A stretch of 64,000 nt of DNA from Actinomycetota bacterium (GTDB taxonomy: Bacteria; Actinomycetota; Humimicrobiia; Humimicrobiales; Humimicrobiaceae), in NCBI GenBank assembly GCA_028717265.1, contig JAQUOE010000004.1, positions 1-64,000 on the forward strand, written 5' to 3'. Both the position numbers and the translations under genes were made by a program. Within the stretch, counting starts at the first letter, position 1. The number at the start of each line of letters is the position of its first letter. Below are positions 40,808 to 46,518 of the stretch, piece by piece. The notes under the pieces were generated by a model. It saw only the letters and a list, made by a program, of their open reading frames with translations, was not told where the DNA came from and made no database searches.

Positions 40808-42652
40808 TCAGTCGTTGAAGGAGAACTTTTTATTAGTTATGACTTTCAGGCAGGCTTCAGCTATTTTAGGATCATAAAGTTTTCCTTTGTTTTTCTTTAT
40901 TTCTTCAATAGCCATTCCAATCCCAAGAGCGGGTCTGTATGGTCTATGTGAAGACATTGCTTCCACCACATCCGCTATACCGATAATTTTTGCTTCAAGA
41001 GTTATATCTTTGCCTTTAAGACTGTTTGGATAGCCGGAACCATCTTCCCTTTCGTGATGCTGTAAAATAATTTGAGCTATTGGATAATGAAAATTTATTT
41101 TTTTAATGATATTAAATCCAGTGATTGGATGGGTTCTTATAAGTTTAAACTCTATGTCTGTTAATTGGCCTGGCTTAGAAAGAATAGAAGTTGGTATACT
41201 TATTTTTCCTATATCATGGATTGCCGCAGAGGTTCTTATAAGTTTAATTTTTTCATCGCTGAGATTTAATTTTTTAGAAATCTTTTCAGCAAGCATAGTT
41301 ACTCTTTTCTGATGTCCTGCTGTATAAGGATCTCTCGTTTCCACTATCATAGCAAGAGTATTTATAGTATCGTCTAATGTTCTTTCCAGTTCTTCGTATG
41401 CTTTTTTTCTTTCTGTGATATCTGTAAAATTAACCAACAGATATTTTAATTTTCCATTATTTATTAGAGGCGAAGCCCTGAGTTCTACCCAGAATATTTG
41501 GCCTCTTTTATTTAAAAATGGCAATTCAGGAATAATGATATCATTTTGCATGGCAGAATTTAATTTTGCCATGCAGCTATGCATCATTTCTTTTGGCCAG
41601 TATGGATAAGGAGGTTTAATACCAATAGTATCTTTTAAGGAAAAGCCGGTAATTTTCTCAAGCGCAGGATTGATATACCTGATTGATTTATCCGGATTTA
41701 TAACAAGAGTAGGGCTGGGGGAATTTTCAAGGATGGTTTTGTTGAACTCTCCGCTTTCCCTGAGCTTATCTTCGATCTTCATACGCTCGGTTATATCTGT
41801 TATTATCCCCTGAATTCCCAGGATTCTTTTATTTTTTTTAATTACGGATATGCGAACTTCCCCGGTAAATAATCTTTTATCCTTATGCCTCCAGTTGATA
41901 AGCAAAGGTTTTATTTTTTTGCCAAGCAAGAGTCTCGTAAATATCCTGACGTATTGAGGTACATCTTTAATTAAAAGAAATTTTAAATTTTTAAAGTGAC
42001 TTCCCAGAAGATACTGTTTTTTAAAACCCGTAAAGTGCAGTACCGCATCGTTTATATTTGTAATAAATCCTCTATCATTCAGAATAGCAATCCCAACCGG
42101 AGATGTTTCAAAAAGAAGTCTGTATTTTTCCTCACTTTCTTTCAGGGCTTCTTCTGCCTGTTCCTTATCTGTTATATCCATTATGAAACCTTCAAGTAAT
42201 TGAAGATCATAATCAGGCAATGGAAGAAATCGTCCAATTTCTGAGACCCATTTTATTCTATTGTTGGCAGTAATTATCCGGTATTTCAGGTGGAATTGTT
42301 TTAATTCTTTTAAGGATTTTTTAACATCATCCCTGACCATTTTTCTATCTTCGGGGTGGATGATTTTTTCATAAGAGATTTTATTGTTCAATATTAATTC
42401 TTCAGGTCTGTAACCGGTTAACCGGAAGCAGCCTTTACTAATAAATTCCATGGTCCAGTTATGATCGTTCCTGCAACAATAAACAATTCCTGGAAGCTCG
42501 TTTGTTATCGAGGAGTGAAAAAGCTGGTTTTTTCTTATAATTTCTTTTATATATTTATCTTTGTCCTTTATTTTTTCCAGAGTTAATAGATCTTCATGTA
42601 GTTTTACATGTAATTTTAAGAATTCCTCTGACAATTTTATGTCTGCTGTCAT
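40808..42652 (-). CDS. three-PAS HD-GYP domain protein (predicted c-di-GMP phosphodiesterase)
   Basis: This soluble 614-residue signalling protein has an N-terminal helical region, three PAS domains at roughly 50-165 (GIVYCCRNDHNWTMEFISKG), 175-290 (LFETSPVGIAILNDRG) and 300-415 (ILENSPSPTLVINPD), and an HD-GYP domain (~425-610). The HD-GYP markers are HDIGKISIP, HP in RTHPITGF, HHEREDGSGYP and IADVVEAMSSHRPYRPALG. The family hydrolyses c-di-GMP to pGpG or GMP. With no membrane anchor, the PAS domains would sense cytosolic redox or ligands. It is monocistronic and convergent with queA. Confidence 0.93.
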   Translation of the reverse strand: MTADIKLSEEFLKLHVKLHEDLLTLEKIKDKDKYIKEIIRKNQLFHSSITNELPGIVYCCRNDHNWTMEFISKGCFRLTGYRPEELILNNKISYEKIIHPEDRKMVRDDVKKSLKELKQFHLKYRIITANNRIKWVSEIGRFLPLPDYDLQLLEGFIMDITDKEQAEEALKESEEKYRLLFETSPVGIAILNDRGFITNINDAVLHFTGFKKQYLLGSHFKNLKFLLIKDVPQYVRIFTRLLLGKKIKPLLINWRHKDKRLFTGEVRISVIKKNKRILGIQGIITDITERMKIEDKLRESGEFNKTILENSPSPTLVINPDKSIRYINPALEKITGFSLKDTIGIKPPYPYWPKEMMHSCMAKLNSAMQNDIIIPELPFLNKRGQIFWVELRASPLINNGKLKYLLVNFTDITERKKAYEELERTLDDTINTLAMIVETRDPYTAGHQKRVTMLAEKISKKLNLSDEKIKLIRTSAAIHDIGKISIPTSILSKPGQLTDIEFKLIRTHPITGFNIIKKINFHYPIAQIILQHHEREDGSGYPNSLKGKDITLEAKIIGIADVVEAMSSHRPYRPALGIGMAIEEIKKNKGKLYDPKIAEACLKVITNKKFSFND

Positions 42653-42928: not shown

Positions 42929-43453
42929 TTGGTTAATACAATAATATGGACCCTGATAATATTTGTTGCGAGAATTGTCGATGTAAGTCTTGGAACCATA
43001 AGAGTAAATATGATAGTAAGAAGAAAGAAAGCCATTGCCGCCATGATAGGTTTTGTCGAGGTTACCATATTTATATCAGTAATAGTAAGATTGATTAAAA
43101 ATATCGATAATATTTATGGGATACTTGCTTATGGGGCCGGCTTTGCGGTGGGAACAGTTGTAGGTATATTGATATCCGAAAAATTATCCCGTGATTTAGT
43201 AAGCACGAATATCATTTCCAGAAAGCATAATGAGGAAATAAAGGAATTACTTTTAAAAGAGGATTTTGGATTTACCTGCTATAAAGGTGCCGGCAGAGAG
43301 GGAGAGGTGGAGATCATTAATGTGGTTTGCAGCAGTGCCAGTCTTCAAAGATTGAACAAGTTAATACATAACAGGGATTCGGGTGCTTTCGTAGTCAGCT
43401 ATATGCTTGACAGGATACGTGGAGGATTTATCAGGGGATTAAAGAAAAAGTAA
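42929..43453 (+). CDS. DUF2179/UPF0316 family membrane protein
   Basis: This 174-residue protein has about three N-terminal membrane segments (residues ~3-17, 37-56, 66-85) and a cytoplasmic DUF2179 domain (GREGEVEIINVVCSS ... SGAFVVSYMLDRIRGGF). The pattern FVARIVDVSLGTIRV is typical of UPF0316/YebE-like proteins. The start is TTG with GGAGG 6 nt upstream. The function of the family is not established. Confidence 0.88.
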   Translation: MVNTIIWTLIIFVARIVDVSLGTIRVNMIVRRKKAIAAMIGFVEVTIFISVIVRLIKNIDNIYGILAYGAGFAVGTVVGILISEKLSRDLVSTNIISRKHNEEIKELLLKEDFGFTCYKGAGREGEVEIINVVCSSASLQRLNKLIHNRDSGAFVVSYMLDRIRGGFIRGLKKK

Positions 43454-43628: not shown

Positions 43629-45599
43629 ATGAAAGGAGATTCCACGAATTGCGAACCTCCTCAAAAGAGTATCAATTCAAATTCCTGCAAGAAGACCATA
43701 GGGCCGATAGCAAATCTGGAAGAGCATCTGAAGCCCGACTGGTGGAAAAATATTTTTAACTCGACTTATTTAAAGACCGATGGTGACGTTGTAGACGATA
43801 AACTAATCACCAGAAAAGAAATAGATTTATTTATAAGAATTCTAAATTTATCCCCTGAAGACAAAATACTGGATCTTTGTTGCGGGCAGGGAAGGCATTG
43901 TATAGAACTTGCAAACAGAGGTTTCAAGCATGTCGAAGGGCTTGATCGGTCGCATTATCTTATCCAGAGAGCAAAAAAGGAAAGCACTACGATCAAATTC
44001 AGGGAAGGTGACGCAAGGAAGCTGCCTTATGCTCCGGATACATTTGATGCAGTTATGATTCTGGGAAATAGTTTTGGCTATTTCGAAACTTCCAAGGAAG
44101 ACATGATGGTGCTAAAAGAAGTTCTGAGGGTACTAAAACCCTGGGGGAAATTTCTAATTGATTTATCCGACGGAGAATATTTAAAAGAAAATATGAAATC
44201 GAGATCATGGGAGTGGATAGATAAAAAATCTTTTGTATGTCGTGAACGGTCACTTTCTTTTGACAAAACCCGTTTGATCTCAAGGGAAATAATAAATGAT
44301 GTTGATAATGGAGTCGTAACAGATCAATTTTATGCCGAGAGGCTCTATACACAGGAAGAAATAATCGAATTTTTAAAACAGGCAGGATTCAGCAATATTA
44401 CGTCAAATGGAACAATAACACCTGATTCAAAAAGAAATCAGGATCTGGGGATGACCGAAAGAAGAATCATCATATCTGCCATTGCTAAAAAGAACTGGTC
44501 ACCGATAAAGATAAAAAAGTCCCATTTAAAAAATGTTGCCGTTTTACTGGGTGACCCGAATAGAATAGATATTTTGAAGCCATTATATATGTTTGATGAT
44601 GATGACCTTTATACTATAGATCAACTAAAAGATTCTCTGAGAGATATCGAAAAAAACTATAACTACAGATTTCATTACCTTGATAACCATGAGACCATGA
44701 TCAAGGATCTCATTAAGCTACAGGAAAAAGGCAGAATTGATTTTGCATTCAATCTTTGCGACGAAGGATATTACAACGATGCAAGAAAGGAACTTCATGT
44801 ACCTGCCCTACTGGATATTCTGGGAATTCCATACACCGGCTCCGAACCCCAGTGTCTTGCCCATTGCTATGACAAATCACTGGTAAGGGGTATTGCAGAA
44901 GAAATGGGTATTCCTACTCCGCAGGCTTTCTTTATAAAATCCGGGGATACTTCATTCGAAGTACCCTTTGATTTTCCTATGTTTATCAAGCCCAATTTCG
45001 GTGACTCAAGTTTCGGCATAACTCAGAGGAATGTGGTTTATAATATCGAAAAGACTCTGTATGTGATTTCTGAGATCAGGGATAAACTCGGATATGACAA
45101 ACCGATTCTGATCGAGGAATTCCTATCAGGTAAAGATCTAAGTGTGGGGATAATCGGTAACTTTCCTGATTCTTATACGGTTCTGCCGATAATCGAAGAG
45201 GATTACTCGGAACTGCCTGCTGATCTTCCCAGGATCTGTGGTTATGAAGCAAAATGGCTTCAGGACTCGCCTTATTGGAAAATAAAGTCAATACCTGCAG
45301 AATTACCGGCAGAAACCGAAAGATTTATCATAGATTGTTCACTGAGATTATTCGAAAGACTTGGTTGCAGGGATTATACGCGTCTTGACTGGAGGTTGAC
45401 CGATAAAGGGAAACCAAAATTATTGGAGGTTAATCCAAATCCGGGATGGTGCTGGGATGGTCATCTGGCTAAAATGTCAAAGATAAAAGATATACCATAC
45501 AGCGGGATGCTTCTGATGATTTTAAAAGAAGCTGAGAAAAGGTTCAAATTAATGGAAAAGACTGACTTATCGAATTCAATAAATTCAATAGTAAAATAA
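43629..45599 (+). CDS. SAM methyltransferase / D-Ala-D-Ala-ligase-like ATP-grasp fusion protein
   Basis: Two enzymes are joined in one 656-residue chain. Residues ~75-290 form a class I methyltransferase with the SAM motif LDLCCGQGRH (~82), the GDARKLPYAPDTFD motif and LKEVLRVLKPWGKFLIDLSD. Residues ~295-645 form an ATP-grasp ligase of the Ddl type (PFIGSxP-like PYTGSEP, FIKPNFGDSSFGIT, ILIEEFLSGKDLSVGI, LLEVNPNPGW). There is no stop or frameshift between them. AAAAGGGG lies 12 nt before the ATG. The gene stands alone. Products could be a methylated dipeptide or peptide-like small molecule; this is inference. Confidence 0.85.
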   Translation: MKGDSTNCEPPQKSINSNSCKKTIGPIANLEEHLKPDWWKNIFNSTYLKTDGDVVDDKLITRKEIDLFIRILNLSPEDKILDLCCGQGRHCIELANRGFKHVEGLDRSHYLIQRAKKESTTIKFREGDARKLPYAPDTFDAVMILGNSFGYFETSKEDMMVLKEVLRVLKPWGKFLIDLSDGEYLKENMKSRSWEWIDKKSFVCRERSLSFDKTRLISREIINDVDNGVVTDQFYAERLYTQEEIIEFLKQAGFSNITSNGTITPDSKRNQDLGMTERRIIISAIAKKNWSPIKIKKSHLKNVAVLLGDPNRIDILKPLYMFDDDDLYTIDQLKDSLRDIEKNYNYRFHYLDNHETMIKDLIKLQEKGRIDFAFNLCDEGYYNDARKELHVPALLDILGIPYTGSEPQCLAHCYDKSLVRGIAEEMGIPTPQAFFIKSGDTSFEVPFDFPMFIKPNFGDSSFGITQRNVVYNIEKTLYVISEIRDKLGYDKPILIEEFLSGKDLSVGIIGNFPDSYTVLPIIEEDYSELPADLPRICGYEAKWLQDSPYWKIKSIPAELPAETERFIIDCSLRLFERLGCRDYTRLDWRLTDKGKPKLLEVNPNPGWCWDGHLAKMSKIKDIPYSGMLLMILKEAEKRFKLMEKTDLSNSINSIVK

Positions 45600-45813: not shown

Positions 45814-46518
45814 GTGGAAAATCAAGAAAAAAATAAAATTTGCCAATTATGTAAAAAACACAAGAAAAAAAGCGAATTACTTCCTCTTGAGCTGATAGAT
45901 TCTGAATTATTTGATTTCATTAAAGAGAAATATCCGGAATGCTCTGATGAAGGGTATATATGCAGAAATGATCTCAGCAATATAAGACTTAAATATGTTG
46001 AAGAAGTTTTAAGGAAGGAAAAAGGTGAGCTTTCGACTCTTGAAAAGGGGGTATTCGACAGCATAAAGGAGCAGGAAACGATTGCCAGAAATATTAATAC
46101 CGAATTTGAGGAACAATTGACACTGGGACAGAAATTATCAGATAAAATCGCAGCATTTGGCGGAAGCTGGAAGTTTATAATGATCTTTTTTGTAATTATC
46201 ATCGTCTGGATGATAATAAATTCAGTGAGTCTTGCCGGGAAAAATTTTGACCCTTATCCTTTTATACTCCTGAATCTCGTACTTTCCTGTCTGGCTGCAG
46301 TACAGGCCCCTGTAATACTTATGAGCCAGAACAGACAGGAATCCAAAGACAGATTGAGATCCAGGAACGATTATATCGTAAATCTGAAGGCTGAACTTGA
46401 GATAAGAAGTCTGAATGAAAAGATGGAGAATTTATTGGTTTATCAGTGGCAGAGGTTAATGGAAATACAAAAAATACAGACTGATATAATGAATGAGTTA
46501 TCCGAAAAAAGCAGATGA
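45814..46518 (+). CDS. DUF1003 family membrane protein
   Basis: This 234-residue protein has a short N-terminal cysteine-containing region (CQLC, then PEC and YIC), a helical linker, two membrane segments (~118-138 and ~149-174) and a coiled C-terminal tail. GGSWKFIMIFFVIIIVWM and NLVLSCLAAVQAPVILMSQNR (quoted in part) match DUF1003. The start is GTG with AAGGAG 8 nt upstream. Function unknown. The upstream 214-bp gap shows no clear element. Confidence 0.88.
   Translation: MENQEKNKICQLCKKHKKKSELLPLELIDSELFDFIKEKYPECSDEGYICRNDLSNIRLKYVEEVLRKEKGELSTLEKGVFDSIKEQETIARNINTEFEEQLTLGQKLSDKIAAFGGSWKFIMIFFVIIIVWMIINSVSLAGKNFDPYPFILLNLVLSCLAAVQAPVILMSQNRQESKDRLRSRNDYIVNLKAELEIRSLNEKMENLLVYQWQRLMEIQKIQTDIMNELSEKSR

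What the first reader, a model, noticed from the sequence alone, without database searches (positions are those of the whole stretch)
43629..45599. Methyltransferase fused to a D-Ala-D-Ala-ligase-like ATP-grasp enzyme
A full class I methyltransferase and a full Ddl-like ATP-grasp domain share one chain in a stand-alone gene. Ddl-like ligases outside cell-wall loci often make dipeptides or modify small molecules; fusion with a methyltransferase suggests successive steps on one unknown substrate.
Basis: partly seen in the sequence, partly recalled or inferred. Interest (0 to 1): 0.6.

Follow-up and report, generated by a model that had tools for sequence, protein, structure and literature searches.

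The report
Conserved methyltransferase–amino-acid-ligase fusion enzyme
A single gene that joins a small-molecule methyltransferase to an amino-acid ligase is real, nearly unchanged across mostly uncultured, apparently anaerobic bacteria and archaea, and probably makes an unknown methylated small molecule on its own.

Summary
43629-45599 (+) is one intact 656-aa ORF: a class I methyltransferase (MT, ~22-288), a variable linker (~289-299) and a Ddl-type ATP-grasp ligase (~300-640). It is not a frameshift or assembly join. The same full-length fusion occurs in relatives at 68-89% identity, and about 490 candidate loci in many bacterial and archaeal phyla encode a relative; the 80 inspected match over nearly the whole length at 61-89%. 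No intact split pair was found. Bacteria and archaea interleave in the tree, and sister genera have queA-tgt without it, so it moves as a lone gene; no operon partner is shared.

The ligase half keeps every ATP/Mg/oxyanion residue of DdlB in 55/55 sequences, but the D-Ala recognition positions are replaced by other conserved residues. The host has two ordinary Ddls, and archaeal carriers are not expected to make peptidoglycan, so this is not cell-wall Ddl. The MT half's closest solved homologue is NmbA, an N-methyltransferase of bacillithiol, yet 31 of 40 carriers, including all 12 archaea tested, have no detectable BshC. Most likely it is a self-contained two-step enzyme (N-methylation plus ATP-dependent amide ligation) for an unidentified small metabolite. 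Substrates are unknown. I found no published description.

The parts
43629..45599 (+). Fusion gene, 656 aa: N-terminal class I SAM methyltransferase + C-terminal Ddl-like ATP-grasp ligase
   Evidence: ORF; Pfam; same fusion in relatives
43692..44492 (+). Methyltransferase half (~residues 22-288); closest solved homologue bacillithiol N-methyltransferase NmbA (9RI2)
   Evidence: models
43869..43898 (+). SAM-binding motif I, LDLCCGQGRH (residues 81-90); D82, C85, G86, G88, R89 invariant in 55/55
44493..44525 (+). Variable linker (residues 289-299), mean pairwise identity 44% against 71-72% for both domains
44526..45548 (+). Ddl-like ATP-grasp half (~residues 300-640)
44988..44990 (+). K454, equivalent of DdlB K144 (ATP binding), 55/55
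45252..45257 (+). K542-W543: ATP lysine kept (DdlB K215); DdlB Y216 position is Trp in 55/55
45381..45434 (+). R585, D587, E600, N602: oxyanion-hole and Mg2+ ligands (DdlB R255, D257, E270, N272), 55/55
45435..45464 (+). PNPGWCWDGH loop (residues 603-612); G611/H612 replace the D-Ala2-binding S281/L282 of DdlB
42929..43453 (+). Upstream neighbour, DUF5698/DUF2179 membrane protein (same position in sister species; not shown to be functionally linked)
45814..46518 (+). Downstream neighbour, DUF1003 protein (not conserved as neighbour)

Best explanation
The gene encodes a self-contained bifunctional biosynthetic enzyme. The C-terminal half activates the carboxylate of one amino-acid-like substrate with ATP as an acyl phosphate and couples it to the amine of a second (Ddl/L-amino-acid-ligase chemistry); it is not a D-Ala-D-Ala ligase. 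The N-terminal half transfers methyl from SAM, most likely to an amine of the same molecule or of one building block, as NmbA does. The product would be a small N-methylated dipeptide-like amide made from common precursors, which explains why the gene needs no operon partner and can spread alone between anaerobic bacteria and archaea. SHOWN (by sequence): one chain, both cofactor/ATP sites conserved, altered ligase substrate positions, lone-gene transfer. INFERRED: N- rather than O- or C-methylation, the peptide-like product, successive action on one molecule. UNKNOWN: substrates, order, physiological role.
For: Both halves equally conserved (mean pairwise identity 71% and 72%; linker 44%), 54 and 70 invariant positions. 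DdlB ATP/Mg/oxyanion residues K97, K144, E180, K215, R255, D257, E270, N272 kept 55/55 (E187 is Asp 55/55); substrate positions H63, Y216, S281, L282 replaced by E379, W543, G611, H612 in 55/55. MT motif I and NSxGYF loop invariant. MT half aligns with NmbA 9RI2 over N-terminus, core and cap (100.7 bits, 5.4e-28; next best 78.8 bits over the core only); other fold matches include CypM, TylM1, CalS10 and glycine sarcosine N-MT. No shared partner in 121 distinct loci. No intact split pair in about 1,400 genomes of six phyla.
Against: No substrate, product or phenotype is known. Foldseek also lists C-methyltransferases for the MT half, so N-methylation is not certain. Two active sites in one chain need not act on one molecule; domain orientation is not predicted with confidence (pTM 0.54). 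A lone gene could also encode a modifier of a protein or RNA.
Confidence: 0.6

Rival explanations
1. The enzyme modifies a macromolecule: the ATP-grasp half adds an amino acid to a protein or carrier and the MT half methylates it.
For: ATP-grasp enzymes of the RimK and graspetide types modify proteins (own knowledge); very strong conservation and no pathway neighbours.
Against: Ligase half is closest in sequence and fold to Ddl/Van, which act on free amino acids; MT half is closest to small-molecule methyltransferases; patchy distribution and decayed copies argue against a core macromolecular function.
Confidence: 0.15
2. It N-methylates bacillithiol (an NmbA stand-in), with the ligase half improving or extending that thiol.
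For: MT half closest to NmbA among solved structures; window genome and four other carriers of its family have BshC.
Against: 31 of 40 carriers, including all 12 archaeal genomes tested, have no detectable BshC; NmbA is only about 31% identical and other uncharacterised stand-alone MTs are as near or nearer to the fusion's MT half.
Confidence: 0.05
3. It is an ordinary D-Ala-D-Ala ligase carrying an extra domain.
For: Database names (PF07478, NCBIfam Ddl families).
Against: D-Ala recognition residues are gone; the host has two separate canonical Ddls with E15/H63/S281/L282 retained; it occurs in many archaea; scores are about half the Ddl cut-offs or less.
Confidence: 0.02
4. Frameshift or assembly artefact joining two genes.
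For: None.
Against: Identical architecture in seven related genomes and in dozens of phyla.
Confidence: 0.005
5. The enzyme makes an osmolyte or metal-binding solute, linked to ion transport (a special case of the best explanation).
For: Several unrelated lineages have CitMHS-type permeases, CorA or MgtE next to it; its nearest stand-alone ligase relatives include lysine 2,3-aminomutase operons, which may make beta-lysine peptides.
Against: Neighbour recurrence was not tested against a background and most neighbours are unrelated housekeeping genes; hosts include freshwater and groundwater organisms by record title.
Confidence: 0.12

Closest known systems
D-alanine-D-alanine ligase / VanA family (E. 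coli DdlB, 1IOV/2DLN; VanA 1E4E)
   Same: Same fold (TM to target about 0.8), same ATP, Mg2+ and oxyanion residues
   Different: Substrate positions replaced (H63->E, Y216->W, S281->G, L282->H; E15->F with less certain alignment); fused to an MT; found in many archaea; separate clade
Bacillithiol N-methyltransferase NmbA (Chlorobaculum tepidum, 9RI2; PMC12719100, PMC6282198)
   Same: Closest solved homologue of the MT half, aligned through core and cap
   Different: About 31% identity; NmbA is stand-alone and needs bacillithiol, which most carriers do not appear able to make
Ddl-like ATP-grasp pairs in lysine 2,3-aminomutase (KamA) operons
   Same: Among the nearest stand-alone relatives of the ligase half (about 30-37%), mostly sharing the W543 and E379 positions
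   Different: No MT; different C-terminal substrate loop; often two paralogous ligases per operon; relation to the fusion clade weakly supported
Glycine/sarcosine N-methyltransferase (5GWX) and CypM (7WZG)
   Same: Fold of the MT half
   Different: Low identity (about 20%), weaker sequence match, no ligase domain

Membership tests
D-alanine-D-alanine ligase (Ddl) | ATP-grasp catalytic residues (DdlB K97, K144, E180, K215, R255, D257, E270, N272) | tested here: met
   Kept 55/55 (E187 is Asp)
D-alanine-D-alanine ligase (Ddl) | D-Ala recognition residues E15, H63, Y216, S281, L282 | tested here: not met
   F322, E379, W543, G611, H612; E15 alignment less certain
D-alanine-D-alanine ligase (Ddl) | Supplies the host's cell wall; host lacks another Ddl | tested here: not met
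   Two canonical Ddls elsewhere in the genome
D-alanine-D-alanine ligase (Ddl) | Passes curated Ddl score cut-offs | tested here: not met
   119.6 and 115.4 bits against 243 and 245.65
Class I SAM methyltransferase | Rossmann core with motif I and acidic residue after strand 2 | tested here: met
NmbA bacillithiol methyltransferase | Clearly closest homologue over core and cap | tested here: inconclusive
   Best solved match, but uncharacterised stand-alone MTs L014 and L015 score higher against the fusion
NmbA bacillithiol methyltransferase | Co-occurs with bshA-C | tested here: not met
   BshC found in 9 of 40 carriers and in 0 of 12 archaeal ones; bshA and bshB not tested
L-amino-acid / dipeptide ligase (ATP-grasp) | Ligation of two free amino acids | not testable with these tools
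   Needs biochemistry
Anti-phage defence system | Known defence model over the whole protein, or defence neighbourhood | tested here: not met
   Only the MT core matches part of PADLOC mad2; neighbours are housekeeping genes

The most novel reading that the evidence does not exclude
A previously undescribed N-methylated small metabolite (a dipeptide-like amide, possibly a cysteine-containing low-molecular-weight thiol in organisms without glutathione or bacillithiol) is made by this one enzyme in Asgard archaea, methanogens, ANME-1 and many uncultured anaerobic bacteria.
Probability: 0.35. Interest if true: 0.8.

Novelty: new variant of a known kind. Interest (0 to 1): 0.55.

Why it matters
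A lone gene kept at about 60% identity or more between Asgard archaea, methanogens and many bacterial phyla, with two intact active sites and no named product, points to a small molecule that biochemistry has missed. Some carriers appear to be complete methanogen genomes, so the question is testable. It also warns that the database label 'D-alanine-D-alanine ligase' on such archaeal genes is probably wrong.

Tried and rejected
Frameshift or assembly artefact: rejected. Ordinary Ddl: rejected. Operon partner: none shared among 121 distinct loci; local synteny only. Riboswitch near the gene: no Rfam hit in 19 loci. Mobile carriers: no relatives in plasmids, phages or viral contigs. Bacillithiol as general substrate: rejected. 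Literature: no description of this fusion in six searches; the archaeal fusion survey PMC11237513 does not mention it in the passages found (supplements not read). Ion-transporter neighbourhood (CitMHS, CorA, MgtE): noted but not statistically established. Searches failed on wrong input; on a term format.

Full report
OBSERVATION. The ORF 43629-45599 (+) is intact, 656 aa, ATG start with an AAGGGG-type ribosome site about 11 nt upstream. Pfam places Methyltransf_25 at residues 80-173 and Dala_Dala_lig_C at 445-628; Ddl models of NCBIfam cover 346-636 but reach about half their curated cut-offs or less. AlphaFold with 55 homologues gives two well-folded domains separated by a low-confidence joint at 292-298 (mean pLDDT 83.7; pTM 0.54, so relative orientation is not determined).

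THE FUSION IS REAL AND OLD. Seven other genomes (four of the same genus, two of another genus of the family, one of another family of the class) carry the same complete frame at 68-89% identity. A scan of 84,980 species genomes found 492 candidate loci that encode a relative; the best 80 match over nearly the full length at 61-89% identity and come from Actinomycetota, Planctomycetota, Atribacteria, Aminicenantes, Zixibacteria, Deltaproteobacteria, Thermotogota, Chloroflexota, ANME-1 (Methanophagales), Altiarchaeota, Lokiarchaeota, Jordarchaeia, Freyarchaeota and others (record titles). Sampling whole genomes by phylum at the thresholds used: 9 of 397 in the window's phylum, 6 of 119 in the phylum of an Aminicenantes genome, 24 full-length plus contig-split and damaged copies of 197 in the phylum of a Methanophagales genome, several on single large contigs that look like complete methanogen chromosomes, 8 of 247 (phylum of a Deltaproteobacteria genome), 6 of 246 (Planctomycetota) and 22 of 119 (phylum of a Lokiarchaeota genome). 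Incomplete copies lie at contig ends or are broken; I saw no intact pair of separate genes. Apart from pieces of broken or contig-split fusions, the nearest stand-alone ligase relatives reach only about 30-41% and stand-alone MTs about 36%.

EVOLUTION. In a tree of 118 fusion proteins archaeal and bacterial sequences interleave (for example ANME-1, Asgard and Actinomycetota inside one supported set of 41 rows), which implies inter-domain transfer, though MAG contamination can blur single cases. In the window's family, five sister genera have queA directly followed by tgt, while the window's genus and genus g3 have DUF5698 and the fusion between them: a gain at this site, or loss elsewhere. It decays too: G646 has lost the middle of the gene, and G528, G530 and G818 have broken frames. 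It is absent from the plasmid, phage and viral-contig collections. One copy per genome is usual; G1268 has two.

NEIGHBOURHOOD. In 121 distinct loci no gene accompanies the fusion consistently; neighbours are housekeeping genes of all kinds and repeats reflect local synteny. A few membrane-transport families recur in unrelated lineages (CitMHS-type permease in Methanosarcina-like, Asgard, Altiarchaeota and ANME-1 loci; CorA; MgtE; DUF5698). I did not test this against a background and treat it as a lead only. No Rfam element lies near the gene in 19 loci.

LIGASE HALF. Mapped on E. coli DdlB (identity of the reference sequence checked against 1IOV), K97, K144, E180, K215, R255, D257, E270 and N272 are present in 55 of 55 sequences (E187 is Asp 55/55), so the ATP-grasp chemistry is expected to work. 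DdlB residues that contact D-Ala (own knowledge of the Ddl structures) are changed: H63 to E379, Y216 to W543, S281 to G611, L282 to H612 in 55/55, and E15 to F322 in 54/55 (the N-terminal alignment is less certain). The host has two other Ddls (about 40% and 39% identical to DdlB) that retain E15, H63, S281 and L282. The ligase halves form one clade with a single stand-alone protein (L137) at 100% SH-aLRT, separate from Ddl. Other near relatives are ATP-grasp pairs in operons with lysine 2,3-aminomutase and sometimes an acetyltransferase; their exact relation to the fusion clade is weakly supported.

METHYLTRANSFERASE HALF. SAM motif I and the NSxGYF loop are invariant. The best solved homologue is 9RI2, NmbA, which methylates the cysteine nitrogen of bacillithiol (PMC12719100, PMC6282198); the profile match covers N-terminus, core and cap (100.7 bits, next best 78.8 over the core only). 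Fold search also lists CypM, TylM1, CalS10 and glycine sarcosine N-MT, mostly N-methyltransferases, but C-methyltransferases as well. Bacillithiol is not the general substrate: BshC is found in 9 of 40 carriers and in none of 12 archaeal ones, although the window genome has it; and stand-alone MTs L014 and L015 of unknown function score higher than NmbA against the fusion. So 'NmbA-like' is a statement about kinship, not a membership.

MECHANISM. The simplest reading is a one-gene, two-step pathway: ATP-dependent amide-bond formation between two small amino-acid-like molecules and methylation, probably of an amine. Equal constraint on both halves (71% and 72% mean pairwise identity, linker 44%) says both activities are needed. 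The invariant aromatic residues in the ligase substrate loop (W543, W607, W609) could suit a methylated amine by cation-pi contact; this is speculation. Order, substrates and role are unknown.

NOVELTY. Both folds are known, and Ddl-like ligases and natural-product N-methyltransferases are known kinds. The fixed fusion, its altered ligase pocket and its spread over two domains of life are, as far as six full-text searches show, undescribed (the library lacks most subscription papers). Hosts look mostly anaerobic from their titles; that was not tested.

Noticed in passing
L130-L136, L138-L144 (e.g. L132:6478-10257, L131:5884-8999): Operons with lysine 2,3-aminomutase next to one or two diverged Ddl-like ATP-grasp ligases, sometimes with a GNAT acetyltransferase (in L132 a GNAT-like domain is fused to a ligase, in L131 the aminomutase is fused to a ligase): a probable beta-lysine peptide or amide pathway in Halobacteriota-type archaea and Aminicenantes-phylum bacteria.
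   Followed up: partly
L142:2979-9320: A KamA/GNAT/ATP-grasp cassette lies between two remnants of the fusion gene (MT part 55.7% identical, C-terminal end 65%), as if it had replaced or been inserted into the fusion; a chimeric contig is not excluded.
   Followed up: no
L127:8418-9500: A fusion copy that lost the middle of its ATP-grasp domain, apparently a pseudogene, suggesting that the gene is dispensable.
   Followed up: no
L148 and L149 (G1268): One Asgard-phylum genome carries two different full-length copies of the fusion.
   Followed up: no
L192 (G000:C26:3294-4463): The window's own genome has a BshC homologue (bacillithiol synthesis) although it is an Actinomycetota MAG; several relatives do too.
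   Followed up: no
window 40808-42652: PAS-PAS-PAS-HD-GYP type signalling gene on the opposite strand between queA and the DUF5698 gene (identification by eye); a related gene sits at the same place in L028 but not in L029 or L030.
   Followed up: no
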